64,000 nucleotides of DNA from assembly GCF_035994185.1 (NCBI RefSeq), contig NZ_CP108538.1, positions 124,001-188,000 on the forward strand, in the 5' to 3' direction. Positions 15,565 through 64,000 of this stretch are shown one piece after another. This stretch comes from Streptomyces sp. NBC_01217. Lineage in GTDB: Bacteria; Actinomycetota; Actinomycetes; Streptomycetales; Streptomycetaceae. Below the pieces are notes generated by a model that searched no databases, was not told the origin of the DNA, and saw only the letters and a program-made list of their open reading frames with translations. A program made the position numbers and the translations under genes. Each line of letters opens with the position of its first letter. Within the stretch, counting starts at the first letter, position 1.

Positions 15565-16620
15565 CTATCCCCGGCGGCCCCCAGCTGCCGTGGCCGAGGC
15601 ATGCCCCACGGCCCAGGTCGGCAGGTGCTCGATGCGAACGACGGCGCAAGTGATCGAGACCCCGCCCCCGTGTGCCACGATCAGCACATGGTCGCCCGCG
15701 CCGACTTCCCGCGTTTCGACGAGGTGGTTGAGGCCCACGATCTGGTCATTGACCGTCATGTGCCCCAGCCCCCGGCCGAATTCGAGCAGCCCCTGCTCGG
15801 TGCGGAGGCCCATGGGGTCGAGGATCCCCTTGAGGTAGCCCTCCCGGCCGGTGAAGATGTGCGCCACGCGGGTGATGTCGCCGGCGTCGAGGTCGGCCTC
15901 GGCCATCGTCCGCAGAGCGAGTTCCGTCCGTAGTTCCCCTTGGCGCCCCACGGCTTTGGAGATCGCCTCGTCCAAGGGTGCGGCCGTCGCCTGCCGGTCC
16001 TCGGCGTCCACGTCCGTCACAGGAGGGAACTCCTCGTCGCGGAAGCGCTCTTCGACCTCGGCCGTGGATCCGCTGTTGATCGACAGGAGCCTGGCGAAAC
16101 TCGGCTCCTTGGTGAGCACGACGGCGCTGGCTCCGTCGGCGATGACGCCGTTCTCCAGGGACGCCCAGCGGTTGAAACGCGGGGTGCTGACGTTGTCGGA
16201 GCCCGTGACGAGTGCCGCTGCGCGCTCGGGGACGGCCAGGAGATGGCAGGCGGCGAGTTCGAGCGAGCCGATCAGTCCGTTGCATCCCTGACTGACCTGG
16301 TAGGAGGGGATGTCCCGGTCGGTGACATGGCGCAGGACGTAGTGCTGGGCCGACCAGGCTCCAGGCCCCTGTTTGTGCATGCCGGCGTGGATGTGGAGGG
16401 CGAGGTCATGGGGGTGGGTACCGGCGCGCTCGATGGCCTGGCGCGCTGCCCGCACAGCCATGTCCGGGGCCGGCGTGTCACCGGCGACGGCCGCTCCCGT
16501 CCATCCTTGGTACTCGTGGTCCTCGGGGTCGTACCAGCCCAGTTCCACTGCTCTCCCGGCGTCGAGGACGGCGGGGATGTGTACGCCGAGCCCTGCGATG
16601 TACAGGTCGGGGGTCTTCAC
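15565..16620 (-). CDS. KAS III-like acyltransferase (CerJ/ChlB3 type)
   Basis: The GTG at 16620 overlaps the upstream PKS stop as GTGA and gives 351 residues. The thiolase fold is clear: YIAGLGVHIP at the N-terminus, SYQVSQGCNGLIGSLELA with nucleophilic Cys113, VAHIFTGREGYLKGI with His254, and GLGHMTVNDQIVGLNHLVE. In FabH the third catalytic residue is Asn in a GNT/GN loop; here the loop reads N291-D292-Q, like the C-H-D triad of CerJ-type enzymes that transfer acyl groups to hydroxyls or amines instead of condensing with malonyl-ACP. Together with translational coupling to the PKS this suggests offloading of the PKS chain onto the peptide or another acceptor. The acceptor is inferred, not seen. 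Confidence 0.85.
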   Translation of the reverse strand: MKTPDLYIAGLGVHIPAVLDAGRAVELGWYDPEDHEYQGWTGAAVAGDTPAPDMAVRAARQAIERAGTHPHDLALHIHAGMHKQGPGAWSAQHYVLRHVTDRDIPSYQVSQGCNGLIGSLELAACHLLAVPERAAALVTGSDNVSTPRFNRWASLENGVIADGASAVVLTKEPSFARLLSINSGSTAEVEERFRDEEFPPVTDVDAEDRQATAAPLDEAISKAVGRQGELRTELALRTMAEADLDAGDITRVAHIFTGREGYLKGILDPMGLRTEQGLLEFGRGLGHMTVNDQIVGLNHLVETREVGAGDHVLIVAHGGGVSITCAVVRIEHLPTWAVGHASATAAGGRRG

Positions 16621-19600
16621 TTCGAGGACGCTCCTTCCGGCGCGTGGTCGGCCGGCGTGGCCGCCTTGGTGTCGGCAATGGCCTGGGCCAGGGAATCGAC
16701 GGAGCTGTCCCGGAGGATCTTGACCATCGGCAGTCTGACCTTGAGGTGCCGGTCGATGTCGTTCCTGAGCTGGACCGCCATCATCGAATCCATGCCCATC
16801 TTGTTGAACGGCCGGCTCGCGCCCACGCGCTCCGCCTTCAGGCCCAGGATGGCGGCGGCGATCTTCTTCAGTGCCTCGACCACCCCTGGATCCGTCACGG
16901 CTCGGGGCCCGGGGACGGGAGCGGGCGCGGTCTGTCGCGTCTGCTGTACCGGCCGGGCCGCGCGGGCCTCGGATCGCGCCGTGGCCGCCGGGGCGTGTGG
17001 CCGTGCCGGGGTGTCGCGCCGGGTCAGTTCGCCGAGCAGCGGGGCGTGTGCCGCGTCCGGATGGACACGCGCCCATGATGGCCAGTCGGTGCGCAGGACG
17101 ACGGAATGCGAGGTGCCTTCGGCGAGGATGCGCCCCAGAAGGGTGAGTCCCTCGTCGGGGGAGAAGCTGGCCATTCCCCGTGGGACGAGGCCCCGGCCGC
17201 TCTCCTCTTCCTGGCGGGCGACCATGCCGACGCTGTCCCAGTAGCCCCAGTTGACCGAGGTGGCCGGGGCGCCGGAGGCGAGGCGGTGGTGGGCCAGGGC
17301 GTCGAGGAACGCGTTTCCGGCCGCGTAGCCGCCCAGGAGGGGTGACGACAGGATCGAGGAGCCGGAGGAAAACAGGACGAACATGTCCAAGGGCAGGTCG
17401 CGCACCAGCCAGTGGAGGTTCCAGGCCCCTGACACCTTGGCCCTGAGGAGGGCGGTGAGGTGCCGCGCCGTCGTGTCGCTCACGGGGACGGAGTCGTAGG
17501 TCCCGGCCGCGTGGAACACACCGCGCAGCGGAGCCTTGCCCCTGTGGGCCCTGTCGGCGAGGAGCGCGCGCATCGCATGGTGATCGGCCACGTCGACGGC
17601 CGCGTACTCGACGTCGGCGCCTCGCAGCGCGAGATCCCGCAGCAGGACCGTCAGTGCGACCTCTGGGTGGTCGGGGGCGGCCGTCGCCGGGGCGGGCAGC
17701 GGGGTTCGGCCGGTCAGGAGGAGGGTGCGGGCTCCCTGGTCGACGAGCCAGGACGCGAGGCGTGCTCCGATGCCTCCTGCGCCACCGGTGATGAGGTAGG
17801 TGCCCACGGCGCGCACGGGTCCGGGGGACGTGGTCCTCCCGCGGCCCGGTGCGGCGGGCAGCACGTCGTCGGGGAAGGCGACGGTCTGAACGGTGCGCCG
17901 CCCTGGCGGGCTTTCCGTCCTGAGGATCTGACCGGCTTGGGCGGCACTGAGTTCCTGGTGGGGCAGCGGGGAGAGCGCCCCCTTGCCGACGAGGTCGGCC
18001 GTCGCCCGCAACACCGCACCGGCTCGGTGGGGCTGGTGCCGGATCATGTGGGCGATGTCGACCGCGTGGAAGGAGATGTTGGGCACCAGGCGAGTGCGCT
18101 CCAAGGGGGCGGCATCGGCGCTGTCGGGCCCGGTGAGCTCCACGTAGTGTCCGTAGGGTGCCAGCAAGGAGAGGCCGGCGCCCAGGTCGCGGCCCGTACG
18201 GTTGCTGAGGATGACATCGAATCCGGCCCCGCCCGCGGAGGTACGGGAGTCCGCGACGTGCCGGATGCCCCGCCCTGCCGGCCACTGCCCCTCGTCCGCG
18301 CTTGCGCCGGTGACGTGGACGTCCGCTCCCAGCCATCGGGCCACATTCACCGCGGCAGGACCGATTCCGGGGGTCTCCGCATGGACGAGCACGCGGTCGC
18401 CCTTTGCGACGCGGGCGACGTCGTGGAGCGCGTGGTACGCCGTCAGGTACGCCCGGGGCAGTGTGGCGGCCTCGGCGGGCGCGGTACCTGTGGGCATCGG
18501 CGCCGTCAGAACCGCCTTGGTGACGGCGTGCGAGGCCGTCGCGTTCTCGGCGAGGGCGATGACCAGGTCGCCGACGGCCACGTCGCGCACGTCGTCCCCC
18601 ACGGCGATCACGGTTCCGGAGCAGCCCGTGGCCAGTGGGACGCCCGGGCGGTCGAGTGCGGCGTGGGAGACCCGGATGACGACCTCGTCCGCGTCGGGCA
18701 CGGGAAGCGTGAACGGGGTCAGCCACTGGTCGGCGGCTGTGCCCGGTCGTGGGAGGGAAAGTCGTACGGCCGCCACTGGCCCCGTGCCTGCGGTGGCCCT
18801 CTCACGCATGACCAGGCGGGCGACGCGGCGCGTGCCGTCGCGCAACGCGATCTGGTCCTCGTCGTCGGGTCCGAGGAGGTCCGCGATCAGGGCGTCGACG
18901 CTCCTTGAGTTGCGGTCGAGGTCGACCAGGCGCGTACGCAGTTCCGGGTGCTCGGCGGAGAGAGTGCGTCCCAGTCCCCACAGCAGCGCCTGGAAGGGGG
19001 CTACGTGCCGGTCGTCGGCTGCGACACGCTGGGCATGGCGGCTGATCAACCATAGCCCGGGATCGCCGGGCTGTTCCCGGGCGTCCAGGGCCTGCGCGAG
19101 GTGGATGACACTGCCGCAGGCCAGCAGCTGGACTCTGTCGATCTCCTTTGCCGTGGCGTCGAGTCCTGCTTCCGCGTCCAGGGACCACAGGTGCACGATG
19201 CCACGGAGTGGGCCGCGTTCTACGACGTCGTCCAGCACCGCGGAGTAATGCGCGGGGTCGGCGGGGTCGATGCGGAACCGGTCGCCGGCGGCCTGATAGC
19301 TCGCGGCGGCGGTCACGACAACGGTCTCCTGGCCCTCGGCGGCGAGCCCTCTGGCCACGGCCCGTCCGCAGGGCCCGCTGTCGCTGAAGACCAGCCAAGT
19401 TCCGTGCTGGGAAGGCATGCCGACGGCGTCCGGGCGTGGCTGTGCCCTCCACTGGAGTTCGTACCGCAGGCCGTCCAGGTCGTCTCCAGGGACCGAAGGG
19501 GCGGGGGCAGTGGTCACGGGGGCCTCCTCAAGGGCCGGGGCATGACCGGCGAGGTACTGAAGTCGCGCACCGCGTATCTCGGCCAGGAGCCGTCCGGAGG

Positions 19601-22600
19601 CGTCGGCCATGCGGATGTCGGCGGCGAACGAGTCCCCGCGCGTGGTCGGCACCAAGCGCACGTGGCTGAAGACTTCATGCCCGGGCCGGTGATAGGTGCG
19701 GAACTCGTCGATCCCGCCGAAGACGAACACGCCCTCCGGGTCCGCCACCGTGCGCGGACGGGCCGCCGCCATCCCATGGCAGCCGGCGTCGAGCAGCGCG
19801 GGATGGAAGTGGTGGTCGCCGAGGGCGGCGCGCACCCCCTCGGGACTCGCGAGGCGTGCCAGAGCCTCGCCGTCCCGGCGCCACAGCTCCACCACGCCTC
19901 GGAACGCACCATTCCACTGGTTGCCGCGTTCGGCGTTGTAGGCGTAGAACTCGGCGGCACTCTGGTGCGTGGGGAGGCTGTTCCGGACGGCCGCCAGGTC
20001 GACCGGGGTTCCGTGTTCCGGCTCGTGAAGGGTGCGACCCATCGCTTCGGCGTGCAGGACCCACGGGGCGTCGTCGGAGAATCTGCCGTGGACTTGGAAC
20101 GCGACCCGTTCCGAACCGAGGACGGCGCTCACCCTCAGGGTGGGGGCCGGGCCGTTCCCGTCGAGGTAGAGGGCCTGCCGGTAGTGGACGTCGGTCAGTG
20201 CGACCGGTCCGTCACCGAGGATCTGCCAGGTGGCTTCCGTGAGCAGCTCCAGGTACAGGGTGCCGGGCACGACGACGGTGTCCTGGATCCGGTGGTCGGC
20301 CAAGTACGCGTGGCGGCACGGATCGAGGGGGCCCTCCCACGTGCGGGTGTCTCCGGCGGTCGTCGTACGGGTTCCCAGGAGCGGGTGGCCGGGCCCGGTT
20401 TCCGGCCGGGGCCGCGCGGGCTTCGCAGCGACGGCGGACTCGGGCAGCCAGTGCCGGGTGCGCTGCCAGGCGTAGCCGGGCAGCGGAACGTACCGGCCGC
20501 CGTCCACGATGGCGGCGAGGTCCAGCGGCACCCCGGCGGTGTGCAGGCGCCCCGCCGCGGTCAGCAGGGCGAAGCGTTCGCCCTCGTCGCGGTGGAGGGA
20601 GCCGACGGCGATGGTGTCGTCGCGGCCTGCAGCGCGACCGGTCTCCTTGATGGCGTTGATCAGTACCGGGTGCGGGCTTAGCTCGATGAACACGGTGTCT
20701 TCGGCGTCGAGTTGGCGGCGCACCGCGCCAATGAAGTCGACGGCCTCACGGATGTTCCTGGCCCAGTAGTCGGCGTCCATGCCGGAGCCGTCGACGACCT
20801 CACCGAGGAGCGTCGAGTGGATCGGGATCACCGCTCGGCGCGGGGCGAGGTCCTTCAGTGCCTCCAGCAGGTCGTCGCGGACCACGTCCATGTGCGGGGA
20901 GTGCGAGGCGAAGTCGACCTTGACGAGCCGGTTGGGTATCCCCCGTGCGTCGAGGCCCACCAGGACCTCGGCCAGGGCGTCCACGTCTCCGGCGAGCAGC
21001 GTCGAGGACGGGCTGTTGGCGGCCGCGACGGAGACGGTGTCCTCGTGGCCCGCGAGGGCCCGGCCCGCCTCGTCGGCGGGCAGGGCGACCACGGCCATGG
21101 CACCACGGCCCGCCAGGCGCCTGGCGATCCGGCTGCGGCGGCAGATGACGGCCGCGGCGTCCTCGAGGCTCAGGGCTCCCGCGATGTAGGCCGCCGCCGA
21201 TTCGCCCATGCTGTGGCCGATGACGACGTCGGGTTCGACGCCCCAGGAGCGCCACACCTCCGCCAGGGCGATCTCCATCGCCCACAGCGCGGGCTGGATG
21301 ACGTCGAGTTCGGCGAAGCGGTCCTCGGGACCGTCTCCCAGGAGTTCGATGACGGACCACCCGGTCTCGGCGCGGATCGCGGCGTCGCATGCCTGCATGG
21401 CGCGGGCGAAGACCATTTCGCTGTCGAGCAGTTCTCGTCCCATGCCGATCCATTGGGACCCCTGACCGGGGAAGACGAACGCGACCCTGGGGCGCTGTGC
21501 GGGATCGGTGTACTCGGAGAAGGACAGGGAGGGGTCGGGGTCGCCTTGCGCGAAAGCGGTCAGCGCCAATGCGGCCTCCTCGCGGGAGGCGGCCGGAAGG
21601 GCCAGCCGGGCGTCGAGGTGGGAACGGTGCAGCGCAGCGCTGTGGCAGATGTCGCGCAGGCGCGGGGGACGGCTGCTCCCGGCCGTCAGGAATCGTGCGT
21701 AGGACGCCGCGAGTTCGGTGAGCGCCTCGGGTGTCGCGGCGGAGAGGGTAAGCAGTTCCGTGCGGTCGGTTGCCTTTCCCCCGACGGGCTCCGGGGCGGG
21801 CACGTGTTCCTCCAGGACGAGGTGGGCGTTGGTGCCGGAGATGCCGAAGCTGTTGACGCCCACCAGAGCGGGCCGGGCTGCGTCGGGCAGCGGCGTGTTC
21901 CGAGTCGCGACGGTCAGCGGAAGTGTCGCCCAGGGCACGGCCGGGTGGGGCTCGTTGAAGTGCAGGCTCGGGGGGACGACGCGCTTTTCGAGGCAGAGCA
22001 CCGCTTTGATGAGGCCGGCGATTCCTGCCGCTGCCTCGGCGTGCCCGATGTTGGTCTTGACCGAGCCCACGAGGACGGGACGATCGGCGGGCCGGTCCTT
22101 GCCCAGGACCTCGGCGAGCGCTTCGAGTTCGACCGGGTCACCGACAGCGGTCCCTGTGCCGTGCGCCTCCACGTAGTCCACGTCGGCCGGGTTCACGCCT
22201 GCGTCGGTGTAGGCACGCAGAAGTACGTCGCGCTGGCCCTTGACCCCAGGGGCGACCATGTATCCGCCGGACCGGCCGTCGTTGCCCACCGCGGAGCCAC
22301 GCAGGACCGCCCGGATCCGGTTCCCGTCGGCCAGCGCCTGGGAGAGGGGCTTGAGGATCACGCTGCCGATGCCTTCGCTGCGGACGAAACCGTCCGCGGA
22401 CGCGTCGCCGAACTTGCAACGGCCGTCCCTGGCGAGCATGCCCGCGCCGGAGTACGCGACTCCTGCGTCCGGCCGGAGAACGAGACCAGCCGCGCCCGCG
22501 ATGGCCAGCCGGCATTCGCCGAGGCGGAGGGCCTGCACGGCATGGTGCACTGCCACCAGTCCCGAGGAGCACGCCGCATCGACGGTGATGCTGGGGCCTC

Positions 22601-23132
22601 GTAGGTCGAAGGCGTAGGACAGCCGCCCTGACATGGGCGCGCGGAGGCCGCCTCCCGTCATGTCGTACAGGTCGTAGTGGTCACGTGCGGCACGCTGAGC
22701 GTGCCAGTAGTCGTCGCTGATCTGGCCGATGTAGACGCCGGTGTCGGAGCCCGCCAGTGCGGACAGCGGGATGCCCGCGTCCTCCAGGGCCTCGTAGGCG
22801 ACTTCCAGCAGCAGACGCTGCTGGGGGTCCATTTTGTTCGCCTCCCGTGAAGTGATGCCGAAGAACTCGGCGTCGAACTCCGCGACCCCCTTGAGGAATC
22901 CGCCCCATCGGCTGACGGTACGGCCGGGCGTACGCGGGGTGGGGTCGTAGAGCGCGTCGACGTCGTAGCGGTCGGCGGGGATCTCGGTGATCGCGTCGGT
23001 GCCGTCGCGCAGGAGCGCCCACATCTCGTCGACGGTGTCGGCGCCGGCGAACCGGCCGGCCATGCCGATGACGGCGATGGGTTCGGCGGGCTCCCGCCCC
23101 GGTGTGCGGCGGGGCTTGTCGTGCACGGGCAC
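16617..23132 (-). CDS. Highly reducing type I PKS module (KS-AT-DH-ER-KR-ACP)
   Basis: The GTG at 23132 with GAGG nine bases upstream gives 2171 residues. Domains in order: KS (about 15-440, nucleophile Cys188 in VDAACSSGL, VEAHGTGTAVGDP, GHAEAAAG); AT (about 555-860, GHSMGES with Ser641 and VDFASHSPH, closer to the YASH methylmalonyl motif than to HAFH); DH (about 920-1190, YLADHRIQDTVVVPGTLYLE and HFHPALLDAG); a medium-chain-dehydrogenase-like ER (about 1470-1760, GDRVLVHAETPGIGPAAV, with the GGVG loop altered to PGIG); KR (about 1775-2000, ITGGAGGIGARLASWL, GGYAAGNAFLDAL); ACP (about 2070-2145, MGMDSMMAV). The KS-AT-DH-ER-KR-ACP order and lack of TE resemble mycocerosic-acid-synthase-type iterative PKSs. 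A saturated, perhaps branched acyl chain is likely. Next to it lies the KAS III gene. Confidence 0.92.
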   Translation of the reverse strand: MPVHDKPRRTPGREPAEPIAVIGMAGRFAGADTVDEMWALLRDGTDAITEIPADRYDVDALYDPTPRTPGRTVSRWGGFLKGVAEFDAEFFGITSREANKMDPQQRLLLEVAYEALEDAGIPLSALAGSDTGVYIGQISDDYWHAQRAARDHYDLYDMTGGGLRAPMSGRLSYAFDLRGPSITVDAACSSGLVAVHHAVQALRLGECRLAIAGAAGLVLRPDAGVAYSGAGMLARDGRCKFGDASADGFVRSEGIGSVILKPLSQALADGNRIRAVLRGSAVGNDGRSGGYMVAPGVKGQRDVLLRAYTDAGVNPADVDYVEAHGTGTAVGDPVELEALAEVLGKDRPADRPVLVGSVKTNIGHAEAAAGIAGLIKAVLCLEKRVVPPSLHFNEPHPAVPWATLPLTVATRNTPLPDAARPALVGVNSFGISGTNAHLVLEEHVPAPEPVGGKATDRTELLTLSAATPEALTELAASYARFLTAGSSRPPRLRDICHSAALHRSHLDARLALPAASREEAALALTAFAQGDPDPSLSFSEYTDPAQRPRVAFVFPGQGSQWIGMGRELLDSEMVFARAMQACDAAIRAETGWSVIELLGDGPEDRFAELDVIQPALWAMEIALAEVWRSWGVEPDVVIGHSMGESAAAYIAGALSLEDAAAVICRRSRIARRLAGRGAMAVVALPADEAGRALAGHEDTVSVAAANSPSSTLLAGDVDALAEVLVGLDARGIPNRLVKVDFASHSPHMDVVRDDLLEALKDLAPRRAVIPIHSTLLGEVVDGSGMDADYWARNIREAVDFIGAVRRQLDAEDTVFIELSPHPVLINAIKETGRAAGRDDTIAVGSLHRDEGERFALLTAAGRLHTAGVPLDLAAIVDGGRYVPLPGYAWQRTRHWLPESAVAAKPARPRPETGPGHPLLGTRTTTAGDTRTWEGPLDPCRHAYLADHRIQDTVVVPGTLYLELLTEATWQILGDGPVALTDVHYRQALYLDGNGPAPTLRVSAVLGSERVAFQVHGRFSDDAPWVLHAEAMGRTLHEPEHGTPVDLAAVRNSLPTHQSAAEFYAYNAERGNQWNGAFRGVVELWRRDGEALARLASPEGVRAALGDHHFHPALLDAGCHGMAAARPRTVADPEGVFVFGGIDEFRTYHRPGHEVFSHVRLVPTTRGDSFAADIRMADASGRLLAEIRGARLQYLAGHAPALEEAPVTTAPAPSVPGDDLDGLRYELQWRAQPRPDAVGMPSQHGTWLVFSDSGPCGRAVARGLAAEGQETVVVTAAASYQAAGDRFRIDPADPAHYSAVLDDVVERGPLRGIVHLWSLDAEAGLDATAKEIDRVQLLACGSVIHLAQALDAREQPGDPGLWLISRHAQRVAADDRHVAPFQALLWGLGRTLSAEHPELRTRLVDLDRNSRSVDALIADLLGPDDEDQIALRDGTRRVARLVMRERATAGTGPVAAVRLSLPRPGTAADQWLTPFTLPVPDADEVVIRVSHAALDRPGVPLATGCSGTVIAVGDDVRDVAVGDLVIALAENATASHAVTKAVLTAPMPTGTAPAEAATLPRAYLTAYHALHDVARVAKGDRVLVHAETPGIGPAAVNVARWLGADVHVTGASADEGQWPAGRGIRHVADSRTSAGGAGFDVILSNRTGRDLGAGLSLLAPYGHYVELTGPDSADAAPLERTRLVPNISFHAVDIAHMIRHQPHRAGAVLRATADLVGKGALSPLPHQELSAAQAGQILRTESPPGRRTVQTVAFPDDVLPAAPGRGRTTSPGPVRAVGTYLITGGAGGIGARLASWLVDQGARTLLLTGRTPLPAPATAAPDHPEVALTVLLRDLALRGADVEYAAVDVADHHAMRALLADRAHRGKAPLRGVFHAAGTYDSVPVSDTTARHLTALLRAKVSGAWNLHWLVRDLPLDMFVLFSSGSSILSSPLLGGYAAGNAFLDALAHHRLASGAPATSVNWGYWDSVGMVARQEEESGRGLVPRGMASFSPDEGLTLLGRILAEGTSHSVVLRTDWPSWARVHPDAAHAPLLGELTRRDTPARPHAPAATARSEARAARPVQQTRQTAPAPVPGPRAVTDPGVVEALKKIAAAILGLKAERVGASRPFNKMGMDSMMAVQLRNDIDRHLKVRLPMVKILRDSSVDSLAQAIADTKAATPADHAPEGASSK

Positions 23133-23229
23133 GGTCTGTTCCTCATGTCTGGCTGGGTGGCTCTGGTGAGACCACGGGGAGTGCTGCTGGCTGGACCGCT
23201 TCCGCGGAAGAGCTCCCGGCACGGCGAGC
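23133..23229. promoter_or_regulatory. Short spacer with palindrome between NRPS-MFS and PKS genes
   Basis: The 97-base spacer contains the perfect palindrome TTCCGCGGAA at about 23201-23210 and the PKS ribosome site. No promoter is evident. The two genes are probably in one transcript, and the hairpin could tune expression of the PKS. Confidence 0.3.
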
Positions 23230-26200
23230 TCAGCCCGTGCGGCGGGTGGCGGCGAACCGGGTGTCCGCCTGCTCTTGGACGAGGTCCAGGTCGTGTTCGG
23301 TCTCGGCACCGGGTGTCGCGTCGGGCAGGTCGTCCTCCAGCCGCCGCAGGGGCCGGTACAGGAGGCCGAGAGCGCCCCATGCGGCGATGCACAGCCCGCA
23401 CACGATCAGCAGCAGGGCCATGCCGCTTCCGGGACCGGTGCCGAGCACGGCGCCGAGGGCGGGATGCCCCCGCAGGGCGGGAGTGAACACACCGTCGGCG
23501 AGCGGTCCCGCCGCGAGGAAGCCCACGGGCTGGGTGGCGAGCGCGAGCATGACGTTGGTGGCCAGGACCCGGCCCTGCAGTTCCTGTCCCACCTTGACCT
23601 GGATGATCGACAGCCAGTGGGCATTCATCACGGCCATGGCGCCTATCCGCAGCGCCAGGCCGGCCGCCACCACCGGCAGGGAGGCGTGCACGCCCATCAG
23701 GACGGTGCCGGCGCCGACGCCGAGGGTGGCGCCGATCATGCCGATGGCCCGGCGCCGGGTCCCCCCCCAGGGCACCATCAGCAGTCCGCCGACCACGCCG
23801 CCCAGTCCGCCCACCGTCGTCACCAGGCCGAGCTGCGCGGTGCCGGCGAAGGAGAGCACAAGCGGCTGCACCGCGACGAACACCGTCGAGGCGAACAGGT
23901 TCAGCACCGCGGCGAAGCCGGTCAGCAGGAGCAACGGCCTGCGCCGCGCGATGAACCGCCAGCCGCCGGTGAGGGCCTGGCCGAAAGTCTCGCGTTGTCT
24001 GCGGAACATCCGGTCGGGGAAGCGGACGGCCAGTAGGGACCCCACGCCCGCGGCGAAGGCGCACACGCTGACACCGACGACGCCGGACACGCCGACCACG
24101 GCCACGAGCGCACCGCCGAGGAGCGGTCCGACCACGCCTGCGAAGCCGAGTCCGAGCCCCACGAGGGCGTTGGCCTGCGGCAGGTACGGCTTGGGCACCA
24201 GTTGAGCGGTGGCGGCCAGATAGGCGGGCCGGTGGAAGGCGGTCGCGATGGAGGTGATCGTCACGATGAGGCACACGGCCGCCAGGGACATCCGGCCGGT
24301 GGCCAGCAGCACCGCCAGTACCGCCATGGCCAGCCCGCTGGTGCCGTCCGCCGCGAGCATGACGCGGCGGCGGTCCACCCGGTCGGCGACCGTTCCCCCG
24401 AGGGGTGTGACCAGCACGGCGGGCAGCGTGGCGAGCATCGTTACCAGGGCCAGGTCGAGGACCCGGCCGCTGCGCTGATAGGCCCACACGCCGAGCGCGA
24501 ACATGCTGAGGCTGCCGCCCAGCATGGACAGGAACTGCCCGGCCGCGACGGTGTGGAAGGGACGGAGGCCGGAGGACCGCACGGGGGTCGCCGCGACCGG
24601 CTCGGGCAGGCGTCCGGCCGTCCAGTCCGTGATCCGTTGCCTGAGCAGGGCGGCGAGGGGGGCTGCCTGATGGCGCAGGAAGTAGTGGCCCGCCTTGGGG
24701 ATGGTGGCGAGCTCGACCCGGTCGGCGAAGGCACCCCATTCGCGGTACCGCTCCTGGTACAGCTCGGTGGAGTGGTCGGCCTCGCCCACCACGCACAGGA
24801 CCGGCGCCGCCAGGGCGGCGCGCGGCGCGGCCAGTTCCCGGGCGTACCAGGCCCGGGCCTGCGTCGAGTCGTGGCGCATGGCCCGCAGCGCGGTCTCGGT
24901 GGTGGTGTCGTCCATGTCGTCGAGGATTCCGCCGGTCGTGCGCAGGACGTCGCGGTAGTGGCGGCTGGAGGCCCAGCGCTCCAGCGGCAGGACGCGGTTG
25001 GCCCAGGCGGCCAACCGTCCCGGCAGCCCCGCAGAGGGAAAGTTGCCCGCCACGACCACGCCGAGCACCTCGCGTCCCCCGGCCTCCAGCCTGCGGGCGA
25101 GCGCGACGGCGGCGGCCGATCCCACGGAGTGCCCGTAGACGAGTACGGGCCCGCCGACCGTCGCCTCGATCTCTTCCGCGAGCCGTTCGGTGAGCTCGTC
25201 AAGCGGCCAGAACTCCTCGGCGGGGCGCGCGGGATCGTGCCCCGGCAACTCGACGGCGAGGAGCGCCAGGTCGTCCGGCAGCGCCGCGGCGAGCGGCTGG
25301 TAGACGGCCGCGGACCCGCCTCCGTACGGGACGCAGACCACGGTGGCCGCGGCGTTCCGCGATCCGCTGAGGCGGTGGAGCAGACGGCCCCGCCCGGTGT
25401 CGGCCGCGTCCAGGTGGGCGGCCAGTTCGCGGACGGTGGGCCGGGTGAACATGTCGATCACCCGCAGCCCGGGGTCGCAGGCCCGTACGGCACGGACCGC
25501 GGCGAACGAGTCCCCGCCGAGCGCGAAGAAGTCGTCGTCGATCCCGATCCTGGGCAGTCCGAGGACCTGTGCCCACACCCCGGCGAGGCGGTGCTCGGTG
25601 GGGGTGCGCGGCGGCACCCGTTCGTCGGCGTCGCCCGAGCTGGGGCGTGGCAGGGCGGCCCTGTCGACTTTGCCGTTGGGCGTCAGGGGGAACCGGTCGA
25701 GCACCGTGAGGGAGGCGGGCACCATGTACTCGGGCAGCCGTTCCCGCAGCCCGGTGCGGACCTCGCGGGAGTCGAGCGAGCTTCCGGGGTCCTGCACCAC
25801 CCAGCCCGCGAGGCCCTGGCGCTGTCCCTCGCCGACGGGCAGCACGACCGCTTCGGCGACACCCGGCAGCCCGCGCAGGGCTTCGGCCACGTCGCCCGGT
25901 TCCACCCGGTAGCCGCGCACCTTGACCTGGTCGTCGACGCGTCCGCGGAACTCCACCCAGCCGTCCGGGCGCATCCGCAGGACGTCGCCCGAGCGGTACA
26001 GGCGCCGCCCGTCCACGGTCACGAACCGCTGCGCGGTCAGCTCAGGTGCACCAATGTAGCCGCGGGCGACTCCCGGGCCCCCGACGAGGAACTCCCCCGG
26101 TATGCCGGCGGGCAGCGGGCGGCCCTCCCGGTCGGCGAGGAAGCCGGTGGTGTTGGGCACCGGGCGGCCGAGCGGGACGATGCCGGTCCGCAGGCCGTCG

Positions 26201-28593: not shown

Positions 28594-28707
28594 GGCGTTC
28601 ATCCTCCTTCGAGATGCCTGCCGCCGCCGGCGGCCGGCGGTCCAGACGACACCGCCTCATGTCTGCGGGTACAGCGCGGGCGCATCCGATGACCGCCCGG
28701 GAGAACC

Positions 28708-29991: not shown

Positions 29992-30053
29992 GTTTCTCTC
30001 TCCTCGGGCATTCAGGATCGTTTCCGACCGGTGCACGGTTCTGGCCGGAACCG

Positions 30054-36380
<6,327 letters not shown>

Positions 36381-37026
36381 CGTTTCCGTTCCTTGAGCTC
36401 GTTCGGCCTGCTCGTCGAAAACGGGACGCATTCCCCCTCACGCGCACCACGCGAGCAGATTTCATCCACTCGACAACGACCAGCAGCGACGGCAGCCTAA
36501 GCCCCTTGAGGAACCATCAAATGGAACTTTAACGCGTCGATGACGGTAATCAGGCCACCCTTGACGTGAATTTCACGCACGGCCGCCACAGGGTGCCACG
36601 ATGGACCGGGCCAGGGTGGGGCCGACGTCAGGACCTCGGAAAAGTGAGAGTGCATCCGGCCATGCTGGTGATGGATTTCGCCGCTTTCCGAAGTGCTACA
36701 GTTCGGCCTGGCCGCATCGCCGGACACCGAAGATGCCGCGCGACGGAAACCCGCCGGGTAAATGCGTAAGAATTGGCTGCCGCATTTTCCCGGCAACCAC
36801 GAAACGCACGAGGCCGGTCAATCCGTTTTGCGTCCCGGCCGCCAGAACGGATATCAGCGGGCCGAAGCGCCCCGCCGACGAAGTAGTGAACGGGCCGACG
36901 GTTTTCACCGACGAACCACTGCCCCCGAAGTCAACGGCCCCCACTGCGTCCGGCGGAGCGACTCCGCCGGACCGGAACGGCCGGAACCGCAGTCCACTGG
37001 ATGAACGACGAGGAAGGGGAGGCGCG
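36381..37026. promoter_or_regulatory. Divergent promoter region between the two NRPS operons
   Basis: The 646-base gap between start codons facing away from each other contains no credible gene and is notably richer in A and T than its surroundings. It should carry both operon promoters. A possible rightward promoter is TTGAGG near 36506 and TTTAAC 16 bases later. TTGACG at about 36561 is another -35-like word. The rightward ribosome site GGGGAGG is at about 37015-37021. The inverted pair around TGACGTGAATTTCACGCAC could be an operator. All are by eye. Confidence 0.45.
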
Positions 37027-40000
37027 ATGACGACGACCGGGTCGGACCGTACGTCGGTGCGCCACCGGCAAAAGTCGGACCCCGCGCTCGCGGGGAACGA
37101 CGCCACCTTGGCGGATCTGTTCGAGGCACAGGTACGGCTGTACCCCGACAGGACGGCCGTCACCTGTGGCGCCGAGCACCTCGACTACGCCACCCTCGAC
37201 GAGCGTGCCAACCGCCTGGCCCACGCGCTCATCCGGCACGGCGCCGGTCCCGAACGGGTCGTCGCCCTGGCGCTTCCGCGCTCGATCGACCTCGTGGTGG
37301 CCGTCCTCGCGGTCCTCAAGTCGGGCGCCGCCTATCTGCCGCTGGACCTGGACCACCCTCGGGAACGCCTGGAGCGCACCCTCCGGGACGCACGCCCGGT
37401 GGTGCTGCTCAGCCTCGAACCGATCGCACTGCGCACCGACGTCCCGCCCATGGTCCTCCGCGACCCGGGGACCAGGACGGACCTGGCGCACGGTCCAGTG
37501 ACCGCGCCTACCGCGGCGGACCGCCACGGCCCGCTCACCGTGCACGCGGCCGCGTACGTCATCTACACCTCCGGCTCCACAGGCCGGCCCAAGGGCGTGG
37601 TCGCGTCCCACCACAACGTCGTCCGCCTGTTCACCCGCACCGCCGCCTTCCTCCGATTCTCCGAGCGCGACGTGTGGACGCTCTTCCACTCCTACGCGTT
37701 CGACGTCTCGGTGTGGGAGATGTGGGGTGCCCTGCTGCACGGCGGACGCCTGGTCGTGGTCTCCTACGATGTCAGCCGCTCTCCCGAGCGCTTCCTCGAA
37801 CTACTGGCCGACGAGCGGGTCACGGTCCTGAGTCAGACGCCCTCCGCCTTCTACCCGCTGATGCACGCCGACCGGGACCGTCCCTCGTCGGGCAGCCCGC
37901 TCGTCCTGCGCACCGTGGTGTTCGCCGGCGAGGCGCTCGACTTCGCCAGGCTGGCGCCCTGGTACGAACGGCATGGCGACGACGCCCCCGTCCTGATCAA
38001 CATGTACGGGATCACCGAGACCACCGTCCACGCCACCGTCACGGCACTCACCCGCGACGACGCCGTTGCCGGCGCCCCGAGCCGGATCGGTACCGGCATC
38101 GCCGACCTGTCCACCTACGTCCTGGACGAGGCACTGCGCCCGGTGCCCGACGGTGCCGCCGGAGAACTCTACGTTGCCGGGCCGGGGGTGGTGCGTGGCT
38201 ACCTGGGCCAACCGCCCCTGACCGCCGCACGCTTCGTCGCCGATCCCTTCGGGCCGCCTGGCAGCCGCATGTACCGCAGCGGCGACATCGTCCGCCGTAC
38301 CGAGCGGGGCGAGCTGGAGTCCCTCGGTCGCGCGGACGAACAGGTGAAGATCCGCGGCTTCCGCGTCGAGCCCGGTGAGATCGCGGCGGCCCTGGAGGCT
38401 CACCCGGTGGTGCACCAGGCCGCGGTCATCGTCCGCGAGGACACCCCCGGCGATCGGCGCCTGGTCGCCTACGTCGTCCCCCGCCGCCGAGTGCGGGCAC
38501 TCGCCGACACCACGGCGCACGTCGACGACTGGGCGAAGGTCTTCGACTCCCAGTACGCGGGCGCCGGGACGACGGGCGACATCGCCTTCGGCGAGGACTT
38601 CACCGGCTGGCACGACACCTATGCCGACGGCGCTCCCCTGCCCGCCCCCCACATGCGGGAGTGGCGCGACGCAACGGTGCGGCGCATCCGGGAGCTGCGC
38701 CCCCGCCGCGTCCTGGAGATCGGCGTGGGGACCGGACTGCTGCTGTCGCAGCTGGCTCCCGGATGCGAGGAGTACTGGGGAACCGACATTTCCGTGAGGG
38801 CGGTTGACACCCTGCGCCACGAGACGGCCGCGCGGCCAGGTCTGGACGGGCGAGTCCAGCTCAGCCACCGGGCGGCCCACGACGTCGGCAACCTGCCGCC
38901 CGCGCACTTCGACGTGGTGGTGCTCAACTCCGTCTTGCAGTACTTCTCCGACGGCGACTACCTGCTCGACGTGCTGAGCAAGGCCTGGAACCTGCTCCGT
39001 CCGGGTGGAACCCTCTTCGCGGGCGACGTCCGCGACGCCAGGTCCCTGCGCTGCTTCTCCAGCGCCGCCGTCCTGCGTCGCGCGTCCGCGCGGGACGACC
39101 GGGCAAGGCTGCGGCAGGCCGTCGAACGTGCCCTGGCCCTGGAGGCCGAACTGCTCGTCGCTCCGGACTTCTTCCACGCCTTCGCACGGCGGGAGGACGG
39201 TGGGCGCGGTGGACGTCCAGGTGCGCCGCGGCCGCCACCACAACGAGATGACCCGGTACCGCTACGACGCCGTGCTGCACAAGGCGGGCACACCGGTCAC
39301 CCGTGCTGCTCCGGACCCCGTCCGGCTGCGCTGGTCCGAGGACGTGGCGTCCGCGGCCCGACTCGCCTCCCGGCTGCGCGAGCAGCGCCCCGAGTGGCTG
39401 AGGGTGGCCGGCGTGCCGAACCGACGGACAGCCCAGGAAGCCGCGGCCGTGCGGGCCTTCGACCACGGGGCGGACGTCGCCGAGGTCCGCGACCTGCTGG
39501 CGCGAGCACCGCACGGGGTCGATCCGGAGGCGGTGTACGCCCTCGGCAGTGAACTGGGCTACCGAGTCGCGGTCGCCCCGTCGGCGACGTCCGTCGACGC
39601 GGTGGACGTCCTCTTCTCCCGCGTGGACGGGATCCTGGAGGCGTACGAGCCGACCGGTTCCATCGCGGAACCGGCGGTCTACACCAACAGCCCCATGGCG
39701 GCACGCCACGGCGCACAGGAGACCCCCCTCCTCCGGGCCCACCTGCGTGAGCGGCTGCCCGACTACATGGTGCCCGCAGCCGTGGTGTACCTGGAGCGGC
39801 TGCCCCTCACAGTCAACGGCAAGCTGGACCGCGCTGCGCTGCCCGCGCCGGAGGCCGGAGGAGACGCCACCCTTCGCACCCCGCGGTCACCCGACGAGCA
39901 GGCGCTGTGCGAACTGTTCGCGGAGGCCCTTGGAATCGACCGGATCGGGATCGACGACAGCTTCTTCGACCTCGGCGGCCACTCGCTGCTCGCCGCGAGG

Positions 40001-40168
40001 CTGGTCGCCGAGATCCGCGCCCAACTGGACGCGGATCTCGGTGTCCGCGATCTCTTCGAAGCGCCGACCGTCGCCGCTCTGGCGCCGCGGCTGCGGACAC
40101 CGGCGCAGCGCCGAGGCGCGTCCGAGCGCTCTGGTTTCGTGTTTCAAAAAAGTGAGGTACCGTCATGA
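37027..40168 (+). CDS. NRPS A-methyltransferase-PCP, split by an apparent frameshift near 39200
   Basis: The ATG at 37027 has a GGGGAGG site. The first frame encodes an A domain with no preceding C domain ([46 protein letters not shown]), so this is a loading module. Next comes a SAM methyltransferase inserted before A9-A10: [43 protein letters not shown]. Homology leaves this frame near 39200 and resumes one base later in the frame ending at 40168: [41 protein letters not shown] and the PCP motif FDLGGHSLL. Read as one product after correcting one base it is about 1046 residues. My code reading DVWSVAMVHK is nearest Thr/Ser types. The first frame alone ends at 39552. A real split, programmed shift or sequencing error cannot be distinguished. 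Confidence 0.85.
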
Positions 40169-41841
40169 TGAGCCTTGAGCCGGTGGAGGAGCAGGTCTCC
40201 GCCACTGATTCCCGATACACCTGGGCCTATCCGGTCGACCAGCCGGCTTCAGAGCCGCAGGCGAAGAGGATCCGGACGATCTGGTATGTGGGGCTTCCTC
40301 TCACGTCCGCCCATCGCGGCAGCCACTCCGGCGGAGGAGCCCTCATCGACGAGGCGGGAGACCAGTCCCGCTACGCGAACGAAGGCACGGTCTACCCGCA
40401 TTCCGCGCTGGTCGAAATGATCACCTATCAGAACGCGTGCTTCCCCCATCTGGACTGGCAGTACCTGGACATGAGCCATCTCGACTGGGAAGTCGTACGG
40501 GCGAGGATCCAGGCGGATCCGCCCGACATGGCGGCATTCACCGTCTATTCATCGACCGCGATGTGGGCGTACATCGTCGCCGCCGAGATCAAACGGGTGA
40601 ATCCCGACGCCGTGATCGTCTTCGGCAACGACCACCCCGGAATCCTGCATCGCGAGGTCCTCTCGGGCACGTACGGTTCGAAGATCGTGGACTTTGTCTG
40701 CACGGGGAACAACGGCCCGTTCACCATGATGGGACTGCTGTCGTGGCTCGAGGGGAGGATCGACCTCTCCCGGATTCCGTCGCTCGCGTACCGGGGCGGA
40801 ACCGGGGAGATCCACAACCAGCCGGCTCCCACGTATCCCCTGTCCGAACGGATGCTCCCCGACTACCGGCTCATCGAGGACCAGCTGAAGGAGCACTACG
40901 ACGACGCGTTCAAAGTCTGGTACGCGTCGCACTACGACTTGAAACGCATGGTCACCCTGCCGTTGGACGGCGGCTGCAACTGGGGCCGGCGCCCCACACG
41001 CCGGTGCCTGCACTGCTCGATCCAGGGGCTGACGCCGAAGACGACGGACGTCAGCGCGGCAGTCTCCACGCTGGAAGTACTCGTCGGCCAGCTGAAGTCG
41101 AACGTCTACGCGGCGGGCGACTCCACGTTGGGGATGTCGAAGGCGCAGTGGGGCGGGAGTTCCTCATTCCTCGACGAGCTGGCCGAGGCCTGCGCCGGGT
41201 CGGAGATCCTCCGGGGGCAGCGGTTCATGCTCGCCTACGGCCTGGTCTACGAGTTCCTGCAGGCGGCGGAGCTCTGCAAGGGATTTGTGAAGACCTGGAA
41301 CGTCGGTATCGAGGCCTTCGACCCGAAGCTGCTGAAAGGCAACTCGAAGGGCATCAACAAGGGACCCGACAGGGTGATCGAGGCCTTGGAGCTGGCGCAG
41401 AGCCTCGACTACAAGATGTACCTCTCGGGGATCCTCGGTCTCCCGGGCACCACCTTGCGGCAGCTCAAGGAGGAAGTGGACAACTGGCTCTCCATAACGG
41501 AGGCCTATACGGGATCAATCACGACGATATCCGTCGCCGCCCCGGCAATCATCCCCGGCTCCCGCATGTACCGTGACGCCTTTAACCAGCACGCGAGCGT
41601 CAGGGAATGGCATGGCGAGCTGCTGCCCATCAGGAAGCTCTCGGAGCTCTACATCCGGGAGAACACCGAGGTGGAGCTGGCGGACGTCGAAGCGGCGCTG
41701 GCCGATCTCGGGCGGGGAGTGATCGCCTTGGACAACGCCGGCGCCAACGTCAAGTTCGGCGGTTACATGCTGGGCGGGGTGGACCACGAGGAGACGTACG
41801 AGCGCCGTCTGCTGCACGAGATCTTCAGCGAGCTCAGCTGA
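40165..41841 (+). CDS. Cobalamin-binding-type radical SAM enzyme with CX9CX2C cluster motif
   Basis: The ATG at 40165 overlaps the NRPS stop (ATGATGA), and GAGG lies nine bases upstream. The product has 558 residues. Residues about 60-200 look like the B12-binding Rossmann region of B12/radical SAM proteins: [49 protein letters not shown]. The 4Fe-4S motif is Cys271-Cys281-Cys284 in [16 protein letters not shown], that is CX9CX2C instead of CX3CX2C, with the CxWG context seen in some RiPP-maturing members. The TIM-barrel part follows ([33 protein letters not shown]). Such enzymes methylate unreactive carbons or form rings. Coupling to the A-MT-PCP gene suggests it acts on that amino acid or on the peptide. 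Confidence 0.88.
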
Positions 41842-41903
41842 CCCGACCGCCTTCGGTCGGCGTTTGCAGCCCATGACCAACCGACGACAGCACTGGACCA
41901 GCC

Positions 41904-42140
41904 GTGACGAATCCCTTCGAAGACTCGACCGCACACTACTTCGTACTCTCCAATAAGGAGGGCCAGCACTCCCTCCGGCCGGTGCGCGCAGACGTCCCCG
42001 AGGGGTGGGAGATCACCATCGGAGAGGCACCGCGTCAGGATTGCCTCGACTATGTCGAGCGTTCCTGGGCCGACATGCGCCCCAGGAGTCCGGTCGCGGC
42101 CATGGAGGAGAGCTCAGTGTCGGTTCACGGGGAAGAGTAG
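41904..42140 (+). CDS. MbtH-like protein (first copy)
   Basis: The GTG at 41904 gives 78 residues with the MbtH signature: TNPFEDSTAHYFVLSNKEGQ, HSLRPVRADVPEGW, CLDYVERSWADMRPRSP. MbtH proteins bind and activate NRPS A domains. Family members almost always have SLWP; here the Trp is replaced by Arg (SLRP), and the last motif is WADMRP not WTDMRP. These changes fall in the A-domain-binding surface, so reduced function is possible. The gene lies between the radical SAM gene and the broken thioesterase, 18 bases before the latter's ATG. Confidence 0.92.
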   Translation: MTNPFEDSTAHYFVLSNKEGQHSLRPVRADVPEGWEITIGEAPRQDCLDYVERSWADMRPRSPVAAMEESSVSVHGEE

Positions 42141-42179
42141 AAGCGGTACCTCGTCGAGATGACCAGAAATACAGACAGC

Positions 42180-43079
42180 GAGCCCTTTCCAACCTCATTT
42201 TGCGGTGTTGAGGTGCAGGGTGAGGACGGCCTGGACGAGTGCGGTGATGCGGGTGGTGCTGCATCACAGCTTGCGCAGGAGCCGCCAGGTCTTGAGGTCG
42301 GCCATGGCTTGTTCGCCGAGCGCGCGGATCTTCGCGTGGGAGATGTTGACGGCACGCTGACCTGCGGAGAGCTTGTCCCAACGGCCGCGGTACGGAACGC
42401 GAACTGTGCCGCCGGCACCCTGATAGGCCTTGTCGGCCCAGCAGCGGACGCGGGCCTGGGTCAACGCCTCGATGACGCCGTGAGTGCGGGCCGCCTTGAT
42501 GTCGTGGATCGAGCCCGGCAGGGCCGGTGAGGCCCACAGCAGGTTTCCGAAGGGATCGGCGATGATCTGCACGTTCATGCCGTGCTTCTTATGTTTCCCC
42601 GAGTAGTACGGCCGGTCCGCGGCGATCCGGTCGATGGGCAGGAGCGTCCCGTCGAGGATCACGAACGCCTTGCGTGACGCCGCCCGGGCCGCTGCGGCAA
42701 GGTCCGGCGCGCGGGCTGCCAGGAGCTCGACCGCCTCGGCGACGTACCGGTAGACCGTGGCAAGCCCGACATCAAAGCCTGCCGCGAGCTGGGCGTAGGT
42801 GTGTCCGCAGCGCAAATGCGCCAGTACCAGGAGAGCCTGCCGGTCCGGTGCAAGCCGTCGCCAGCGAGTGCCGCGCTCACGACGCCGGACACTGAGTAGA
42901 CCGGACAGGTACCGAAGGGTCGAGCTGGACAGATCGATCCCCGATGGGTAGACAAGCACACGAAGCTCCGGGCGGACAGGTTGATCTTGGTCGACAACCC
43001 ATTTACCAGGAGCTTCACCTCTTCCCGCAGGCAGCCCACCCCCAACTCACCCGGACGTCCACCAGGTTGGAAAGGGCTC
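42180..43079 (-). mobile_element. IS5-family insertion sequence inside the thioesterase gene
   Basis: The 900-base element has perfect 15-bp terminal repeats: GAGCCCTTTCCAACC at 42180-42194 and its reverse complement at 43065-43079. The base triplet AGC flanks both ends (42177-42179 and 43080-43082), a 3-bp target duplication. The size, short duplication and single transposase gene with a DDE core fit the IS427/IS1031-like part of IS5. Removing 42180-43082 restores the thioesterase reading frame across the junction. The clean ends suggest a recent insertion. Confidence 0.93.
42195..42959 (-). pseudogene. IS5-family transposase with a premature stop
   Basis: The frame from the ATG at 42959 encodes an IS5-type protein: an N-terminal HTH_Tnp_4-like region (YAQLAAGFDVGLATVYRYVA) and the DDE core AFVILDGTLLPIDRI, GMNVQIIADPFGNLLWAS, PGSIHDIKAARTHGV and ADKAYQGAGG. 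A TGA at 42266-42264 stops it at 231 residues, after WRLLRKL. Without that codon, where Arg (CGA) would be expected, the frame continues CSTTRITALVQAVLTLHLNT to a natural stop at 42197-42195, for 255 codons in total. The last acidic residue of the DDE triad probably lies before the stop, so partial activity is not excluded. Confidence 0.85.
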
Positions 43080-43894
43080 AGCGAAGCATTCACCGGAAAC
43101 TGGTTCCGGGTGATCAAGCGCTCAACGAAGCCCCGTGCCGGCTGATCTGCTTTCCCCATGCCGGTGGTGCCGCGAGCTTCTTCCGGGACTGGGCGGACCT
43201 GGTCCCCGACGACATGGACCTTGCCGCCGTCCGATATCCCGGTCGTGAAGACCGGTTCCTGGATCCCCCGCCCGCGTCGATGGCGGATCTGGCCGACCCG
43301 GTGGCACACGCGTGCCTGGCATCGGGCGACGTTCCTCTCGTATTCTTCGGTCACAGCATGGGAGCGGCCGTCGCGTACGAGGTGGCGCTTCGCATGCAGT
43401 CCGCCGGTAGCAGCCGGCTGACGGATCTGTTCGTCTCCGGCTCCGCAGCACCCGGTCGGAGTTCGAGTTCACGGGACCCGCTCACCATGACCGACGCGGA
43501 GATCCTTGAAGAAGTAGCAGAGCTCGGGGGTGCGGACGCGAACACCCTCGCGGATCAGGAGCTCTGGGAACTGCTGATCCCGTCGATTCGCGCGGACTAC
43601 CGGCTGATCGGACGCTACCGGGCGGCGTTCTCCGCGACGGCCCCGCTCGACGTTCCGATGGTCGCCTACTACGGCCGCGCGGACAGGGATGTGGATGCGG
43701 CTTCCGTAGCGGCCTGGGCCGACGCGACGAGCTCCACCTTCGCCATGCGGTCCTTCGACGGCGGTCATTTCTACCTCAAGGACCATGCTCCCGGTCTTGT
43801 TGCCGATCTCCTCGGTCGTCGAGCGCCCTTTCACGAGTGACCTCCCCTGGATCGGTCCGGCACTCTGATCCCTCTGGTGGTACCGGCCGGAAAG

Positions 43895-50560: not shown

Positions 50561-50627
50561 CCATCTTCCCGTGAATCCTTGTGCGCCGGGACCGGCCAAG
50601 GAGCCGACTTTGCTATCAGGAGGTCTC

Positions 50628-51239: not shown

Positions 51240-51363
51240 CCGTGGACCGGCAAATCTGGCTGCCCGTGGGCCTTCAGGGCCTGCTTGAGCCGGATGCGGT
51301 TAACGCCGCCCGTCCGGTTCTGAGGGGGGTACGGCGCAGCAATGCGCCGCACCTACCCGACAA

Positions 51364-55261: not shown

Positions 55262-64000
<8,739 letters not shown>

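What the first reader, a model, noticed from the sequence alone, without database searches (positions are those of the whole stretch)
15565..43840. Hybrid cluster combining A-MT-PCP loading, Asp-like modules, B12 radical SAM, ATP-grasp, iterative PKS and a CerJ-like acyltransferase
Two divergent operons share one control region and contain a complete set for a four-module peptide with N- or C-methylation, an acyl group and export. I cannot match this gene combination to a known product. It is the best candidate for an undescribed pathway in the window. The chain order proposed (37027 protein, 30054 protein, 23230 protein) follows from C-domain placement and from the single TE.
Basis: inference. 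Interest (0 to 1): 0.75.

Follow-up and report, generated by a model that had tools for sequence, protein, structure and literature searches.

The report
Undescribed seven-gene acyl-pentapeptide gene cluster
A set of seven neighbouring genes, kept together in three Streptomyces strains, looks like an assembly line for a five-residue, acyl-decorated peptide whose product could not be named, and one of its enzymes belongs to a little-characterised group of radical enzymes.

Summary
Only that NRPS starts without a C domain, so by colinearity the line has five modules: 44098, 30054, 23230. The 'A-MT-PCP loading' gene is missing from both other loci and changes frame near 39.2 kb; with MbtH, an IS5 transposase and a type II TE it is specific to the window. 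The KASIII enzyme keeps the ChlB3/CerJ triad; the PKS is nearest to mycocerosic acid synthase with a degraded ER motif. TE-MFS fusion recurs in Streptomyces. The radical SAM model folds like OxsB/TsrM/CysS but its family has CX9CX2C (12 of 12 complete sequences), and in 7 of 11 named loci a transporter gene follows it. Best reading: an exported acyl-pentapeptide of unknown structure, a new variant of a known kind. MIBiG could not be consulted.

The parts
15565..16620 (-). KASIII-like acyltransferase (351 aa), ChlB3/CerJ type, triad Cys113-His287-Asp292
   Evidence: phmmer to ChlB3 7eqi E 8.9e-77 and CerJ 3s3l E 4.7e-41; residues checked; 73-79% identical in G232 and S-31
16617..23309 (-). single-module PKS KS-AT-DH-(ER)-KR-ACP, mycocerosic acid synthase-like; ER nucleotide motif degraded; longest open frame given, true start probably near 23132
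   Evidence: Pfam; MAS 9d2y E 5.7e-278 best PDB match; motifs aligned in three loci; 69% (G232) and 63% over 1334 residues (S-31) identical
23230..28602 (-). NRPS module 5, C-A-T-TE fused to an MFS transporter domain
   Evidence: Pfam; 10 hydrophobic segments after residue 1320 in each of three copies; 82-84% identical in the other loci
28708..30057 (-). ATP-grasp ligase of the L-amino-acid-ligase type
   Evidence: PF18603 LAL_C2 E 4.8e-20, PF13535 E 2.2e-12; PDB 3vot (BL00235) E 5.4e-10; the three cluster copies form a clade 100/99
30054..36431 (-). NRPS modules 3 and 4, C-A-T-C-A-T
   Evidence: Pfam; 77-79% identical in the other loci
36432..37026 (.). interval between the divergent genes (candidate control region; not tested)
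   Evidence: gene positions
37027..39552 (+). front piece of a stand-alone A-MT-PCP gene (A and methyltransferase); window-specific; frame changes near 39.2 kb
   Evidence: Pfam; no counterpart in G232 or S-31; frame test
39200..40168 (+). rear piece of the same gene in another frame (end of A domain, PCP); its stop overlaps the radical SAM start
   Evidence: Pfam (ORF 39005-40168)
40165..41841 (+). B12-type radical SAM enzyme, CX9CX2C motif
   Evidence: fold match OxsB 5ul2 E 3.6e-13, also TsrM, CysS, TokK; Pfam B12-binding in 14 of 14 aligned relatives at E<=0.01; motif
41904..42140 (+). MbtH-like protein (name recalled, no family scan), window-specific
   Evidence: translation and 56% match to a second such gene at 49716-49922; no match in G232 or S-31
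42264..42959 (-). IS5-type transposase (120.9 bits, below the curated 140)
   Evidence: NF033581 E 6.5e-35
42944..43840 (+). type II thioesterase, window-specific; the open frame overlaps the transposase frame, true start uncertain
   Evidence: PF00975 E 4.5e-49; only weak (28%) matches in the other two loci
44098..48906 (-). NRPS modules 1 and 2, A-T-C-A-T: the start of the line
   Evidence: Pfam; 77-81% identical and in the same place in G232 and S-31

Best explanation
A seven-gene pathway for an acylated, exported pentapeptide. SHOWN by sequence: the seven genes, their domains, and their joint conservation in three loci. INFERRED: (1) NRPS 44098-48906 loads residue 1 on its A-T start and adds residue 2; NRPS 30054-36431 adds residues 3 and 4; NRPS 23230-28602 adds residue 5 and its TE releases the peptide. 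(2) The MAS-like PKS makes an acyl chain, probably keeping double bonds because its ER motif is degraded; the KASIII-like enzyme takes it onto Cys113 and passes it to an amine, hydroxyl or carrier protein of the peptide line, since there is no starter C domain. (3) The B12-type radical SAM enzyme makes or alters one building block, most likely a free amino acid before loading, because relatives often sit next to transporter genes without an NRPS. (4) The ATP-grasp enzyme forms one further amide, on a building block or on the released peptide. (5) The MFS domain fused behind the TE exports the product. The A-MT-PCP, MbtH, IS5 and type II TE genes of the window are extras not needed for the core.
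For: Synteny of the same seven genes in window, G232 and S-31. Domains. Hand-read A-domain code residues: module 3 identical in the three copies, modules 2, 4 and 5 differing at one of nine positions, module 1 at two. KASIII triad (triad from PMC9573744, abstract and passages seen). KASIII-like AfcL stores a peptidyl thioester and couples it to an amine in a lipopeptide pathway (PMC12186527, passages seen). PKS motifs. PKS and KASIII genes adjacent in 7 of 7 further loci fetched, 6 with a full-length PKS. TE-MFS fusion recurs. Radical SAM fold and neighbours. No counterpart of A-MT-PCP, MbtH or type II TE in the other loci.
Against: No product is known and no A-domain substrate could be assigned. 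G232 is unnamed and S-31 a draft. ORFs were called by a rough GC-position script that misses small genes (it missed both MbtH-like genes in the window), so a small core gene could be hidden, though DNA comparison shows no other long shared block (pieces over 60 bases, pieces over 900 bases). Module 1 code residues differ in the window (Gly/Ala where the others have Phe/Cys), so products may differ. Gain of the A-MT-PCP block in the window versus two losses cannot be decided from three loci. Four of 11 named radical SAM loci have no transporter gene next downstream, no control for chance was made, and the CX9CX2C loop itself is modelled with low confidence (pLDDT under 50 for residues 272-279). 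The PKS-KASIII pair also occurs in clusters without NRPS matches.
Confidence: 0.62

Rival explanations
1. One reading: A-MT-PCP loads an N-methylated residue and hands it to the 30054 and 23230 proteins; 44098-48906 belongs to a different pathway.
For: The A-MT-PCP stop overlaps the radical SAM start (ORF ends, sequence), so it is probably in the same transcription unit in the window; it has no C domain, as a loading module would.
Against: No counterpart in both other loci while 44098-48906 is present there at 77-81% identity; reading frame changes near 39.2 kb.
Confidence: 0.08
2. The window makes its own N-methylated or six-residue variant: the frame change is a sequencing error and the A-MT-PCP block is a working add-on.
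For: Overlap with the radical SAM gene; MbtH-like and type II TE genes beside it; both sides of the frame change remain similar to intact relatives.
Against: No reads were available to test it; no C domain to place the extra residue in the line; no counterpart in the other loci.
Confidence: 0.2
3. The PKS and KASIII pair is a separate acyl cassette that serves another product and only lies beside the NRPS genes.
For: In 7 of 7 other loci fetched (stretches of 16-20 kb) the pair occurs with no match to the NRPS genes; Pfam scans of genes from three of them show TPP-enzyme, VTT, FAD and SDR genes (L097), an MFS gene (L096), or EPSP synthase, iPGM, TPP-enzyme and phosphonate-type transport genes (L101).
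Against: In three loci it directly abuts the NRPS-TE-MFS gene on the same strand and is kept with it.
Confidence: 0.15

Closest known systems
ChlB3 / CerJ KASIII-like acyltransferases
   Same: Best PDB sequence match is ChlB3; Cys-His-Asp triad conserved
   Different: Here next to an NRPS line; acceptor unknown
Mycocerosic acid synthase (MAS) type iterative PKS
   Same: KS-AT-DH-ER-KR-ACP in one protein; best PDB match
   Different: ER nucleotide motif degraded in all three copies; number of cycles unknown
OxsB, TsrM, CysS, TokK cobalamin-dependent radical SAM enzymes
   Same: Predicted fold; B12-binding and radical SAM domains
   Different: CX9CX2C in place of the usual CX3CX2C (usual motif recalled); 13-16% identity to them in the structural alignments
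ATP-grasp L-amino acid ligases (BL00235, BacD)
   Same: ATP-grasp_4 plus LAL_C2
   Different: Lies inside an NRPS operon; of nine further genomes with relatives of 53-59% the one scanned has it in a cluster with PEP mutase and a lysine/ornithine monooxygenase
Streptomyces NRPS C-A-T-TE-MFS fusions
   Same: Full-length relatives in six further loci read
   Different: L082 and L084, the two scanned, have partly other partner genes; three paper searches showed no description of the fusion

Membership tests
NRPS assembly line | C, A and T domains in modules and a release domain | tested here: met
   Core proteins hold five A, five T, four C and one TE domain; TE motif GHSVG
Lipopeptide NRPS with starter C domain | C domain ahead of the first A domain | tested here: not met
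   44098-48906 begins with A
ChlB3/CerJ acyltransferases | KASIII-type sequence with Cys-His-Asp triad | tested here: met
   by sequence, no structure predicted
ChlB3/CerJ acyltransferases | acyl transfer to an O, N or S acceptor | not testable with these tools
   needs an assay
MAS-type iterative PKS | KS-AT-DH-ER-KR-ACP in one protein | tested here: met
   the ER region is weak (PF13602 E 5.9e-6)
MAS-type iterative PKS | intact ER nucleotide motif | tested here: not met
   PGIG, GGTS, GGTA in the three copies where GGVG is expected (GGVG recalled)
MAS-type iterative PKS | iteration | not testable with these tools
   needs reconstitution
B12-dependent radical SAM enzymes | B12-binding plus radical SAM domains | tested here: met
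   14 of 14 and 12 of 14 members at E<=0.01, the window copy below both Pfam cut-offs; fold
B12-dependent radical SAM enzymes | CX3CX2C cluster motif | tested here: not met
   CX9CX2C in 12 of 12 complete sequences aligned
B12-dependent radical SAM methyltransferases | methyl transfer | not testable with these tools
   needs an assay
ATP-grasp L-amino acid ligase | ATP-grasp_4 and LAL_C2 domains | tested here: met
Stand-alone A-MT-PCP loading module | one intact reading frame | tested here: not met
   frame change near 39.2 kb; sequencing error not excluded
Known pathway in MIBiG | same gene set with known product | not testable with these tools
   no MIBiG or antiSMASH on hand

The most novel reading that the evidence does not exclude
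The radical SAM gene represents an uncharacterised B12-dependent family with a CX9CX2C motif that turns a common free metabolite into one particular non-proteinogenic amino acid; actinobacteria either export it as a small antimetabolite (gene beside MFS, LysE or ABC transporter) or feed it to NRPS lines such as this one.
Probability: 0.3. Interest if true: 0.68.

Novelty: new variant of a known kind. Interest (0 to 1): 0.45.

Why it matters
It corrects the borders and the start of a pathway for which no description was found, so that the right genes would be cloned or deleted, and it points to an enzyme group (B12-type radical SAM with CX9CX2C) that could be tested on free amino acids directly. 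It also documents a recurrent assembly-line architecture in which the last NRPS carries its own exporter domain.

Tried and rejected
A-MT-PCP as loading module: rejected on synteny and frame. Asp for modules 3 and 5: not accepted, because the Lys recalled at code position 278 is Ser. Rotihibin as the product of the S-31 locus: the paper lists NRRL S-31 in a table on its own rotihibin cluster, which has a reductase domain, an Asn oxygenase and a diaminobutyrate transaminase that are not among the seven genes here (PMC8552735, passages). A hydrazine or phosphonate pathway suggested by the ATP-grasp relative in G020: no such genes in the conserved seven; one of nine such relatives was scanned. 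Plasmid carriage of the radical SAM gene: no match in 72,556 plasmid records. Origin of the A-MT-PCP gene: its methyltransferase part has matches at E<=1e-30 in 91 of 199 genomes, the best outside the window at 59%, so the type is common and no source was found. The first genome-contig scan with the ATP-grasp protein found nothing. A first ATP-grasp tree had four of 15 rows read on the wrong strand and is discarded. Alignment A1 held a one-residue second row by my slip and is not used. In one search the query named MTPCP was in a wrong frame; it gave no rows. PDB search with the MFS domain: no match.
Full report
1. Where it lies. The window is C1:124001-188000 of a 9.03 Mb genome of two contigs.

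2. What is there. Pfam scans give: 15565-16620(-) KASIII type; 16617-23309(-) KS-AT-DH-ER-KR-ACP; 23230-28602(-) C-A-T-TE-MFS; 28708-30057(-) ATP-grasp with LAL_C2; 30054-36431(-) C-A-T-C-A-T; 36601-39552 and 39005-40168(+) A-MT and PCP in two frames; 40165-41841(+) B12-binding/radical SAM, both below the curated cut-offs; 42944-43840(+) thioesterase; 44098-48906(-) A-T-C-A-T. Between the radical SAM and thioesterase genes lie an MbtH-like gene (41904-42140, name recalled) and an IS5-type transposase (42264-42959, below the NCBIfam cut-off).

3. Synteny. A search of 295 genomes of the genus with the radical SAM protein found matches at E<=1e-20 in 5; only the window's own and G232 (90%) exceed 68% identity. 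In G232 and in Streptomyces sp. NRRL S-31 (L041, and the wider stretch on contig 22 of G295) the same seven genes stand in the same order and orientation: KASIII, PKS, NRPS-TE-MFS, ATP-grasp, NRPS C-A-T-C-A-T, radical SAM, NRPS A-T-C-A-T. Among script-called ORFs these are the only ones paired across all three loci above 45% identity, matches between NRPS paralogues apart; the caller misses small genes. The ATP-grasp copies of the three loci form a clade with 100/99 support among 15 rows. A-MT-PCP, MbtH and the type II thioesterase have no counterpart between the core genes in either locus; in S-31 the radical SAM gene alone fills the gap between the two NRPS genes, while G232 has about 3 kb of other DNA after it.

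4. Consequences. The only NRPS of the core without a leading C domain is 44098-48906 and the only one with a TE is 23230-28602, so by colinearity the order is 44098, 30054, 23230, with five modules. Whether this is a real change or a sequencing error cannot be told here. Its stop overlaps the radical SAM start.

5. A-domain codes, read by hand at positions recalled from the GrsA literature, window: module 1 DPVSIGGVA, 2 DVETLGSVT, 3 DLASIGHMM, 4 DVYTIIAIY, 5 DFTSMAHMV, stand-alone A-MT DVWSVAMVH. Across the three copies module 3 is identical, modules 2, 4 and 5 differ at one position, and module 1 has Phe/Cys in G232 and S-31 where the window has Gly/Ala. Modules 3 and 5 show the ADLG/ADF pattern that I recall from Asp-type domains, but Ser in place of Lys278, so I assign no substrate.

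6. Acyl part. The KASIII-like protein best matches ChlB3 (7eqi, E 8.9e-77), and also CerJ (E 4.7e-41). ChlB3 uses Cys113-His296-Asp301 and moves 6-methylsalicyl from an iterative PKS to a carrier protein (PMC9573744, abstract and passages); the window has Cys113, His287, Asp292 in the aligned places, and the motifs are kept in G232 and S-31. KASIII-like AfcL stores a peptidyl thioester and couples it to an amine (PMC12186527, passages). The PKS best matches mycocerosic acid synthase; KS, AT, KR and ACP motifs are present, the DH motif has Asp for Gly in the window and G232 but not in S-31, and the ER nucleotide motif is degraded in all three copies. Of 246 genomes searched, eight besides the window's own and G232 have KASIII relatives of 59-68%; in the seven of these eight fetched, a PKS of 48-58% identity lies next to it, shortened in one, with other partners (three loci scanned in part). 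The pair is thus a re-used acyl cassette.

7. Export fusion. With the MFS domain as query, 18 matches at E<=1e-60 in 16 of 246 genomes, the window's and G232's own included, all lie in open frames of 1808-3154 aa. Six further loci were fetched, one of them in the window's own genome at 3.9 Mb; in all six one ORF of 1850-2184 aa aligns with the C-A-T-TE-MFS protein from residue 54 or before to 1762 or beyond, and the two scanned with Pfam show C, A, TE and MFS. The fusion is recurrent, not unique. Paper searches for it returned none or, for 933 papers with three of four terms, 15 listed, in none of which the phrase on a C-terminal MFS occurs.

8. Radical SAM protein. Pfam finds B12-binding in 14 of 14 and radical SAM in 12 of 14 aligned relatives at E<=0.01 (two are truncated); no NCBIfam model reaches its cut-off. 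An AlphaFold model (pLDDT 78.5, pTM 0.85) matches OxsB, AprD4, TsrM, CysS, TokK and MgmA at E 3.6e-13 to 4.7e-10; the loop with the cysteines is of low confidence (residues 272-279 under 50). The motif is CX9CX2C in 12 of 12 complete sequences. Of 14 named loci three were left out of the neighbour count: L051 and L052 end with the contig, L053 matches only residues 2-157. Of the other 11, the genes downstream on the same strand include MFS in L044, L050, L054 (Pfam) and L049 (by eye), LysE in L043 (Pfam, second gene) and L048 (by similarity to L043; its radical SAM gene is split over two frames), and an ABC transporter in L042: 7 of 11. The other four have an aminotransferase (L045), a regulator (L047), no clear partner (L046), or the NRPS on the other strand (L041). 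This suggests, without a control for chance, a small exported product, and so a free amino acid as building block here.

9. Verdict. A conserved hybrid pathway of a known general kind, for which no description was found; product unknown. The main uncertainty is chemistry: the substrate of each A domain, the site of acylation, and the reactions of the radical SAM and ATP-grasp enzymes.

Noticed in passing
window 55262-64000 (-), continuing to about G000 C1:232000: Start of a large modular PKS cluster with Met_asp_mut_E, PLP decarboxylase, two AMP-binding enzymes, VinK-type acyltransferase and hydrolase genes: looks like a vicenistatin-type macrolactam pathway (further large ORFs, not scanned).
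   Followed up: partly
window 50571-51285 (+): Aspartyl/asparaginyl beta-hydroxylase-like gene (PF05118, E 1.3e-19) that appears to lose its frame in the rear part; no match in the G232 or S-31 stretches.
   Followed up: partly
window 49716-49922 (-): Second MbtH-like gene upstream of the NRPS 44098-48906, 56% identical to that at 41904.
   Followed up: no
NRRL S-31 NRPS C-A-T-C-A-T (L070-L072): About 212 residues of low-complexity PGAASGAM-like repeats inserted in the A domain of module 4.
   Followed up: no
L096-L102: PKS plus KASIII cassette in other clusters: with TPP-enzyme, VTT, SDR and FAD genes (L097), or with EPSP synthase, iPGM, TPP-enzyme and phosphonate-type transport genes (L101).
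   Followed up: partly
L040 (G020): Three ATP-grasp genes with PEP mutase, lysine/ornithine monooxygenase, cupin and MetRS-like genes: a possible phosphonate and N-N-bond pathway.
   Followed up: no
L031-L032 / L050 (G241): The radical SAM relative lies near an A-T-hexapeptide-repeat synthetase with aminotransferase and aspartokinase genes, resembling a poly-amino-acid pathway.
   Followed up: no
L082 (G011): The closest other NRPS-TE-MFS relative (49%) also has an ATP-grasp gene nearby, with split A, T-C-T and acyl-ligase genes.
   Followed up: no
window 5951-7426, 13329-14720, 42264-42959: Three transposase genes (Tn3, DDE_Tnp_1_4 and IS5 types) beside and within the cluster.
   Followed up: no
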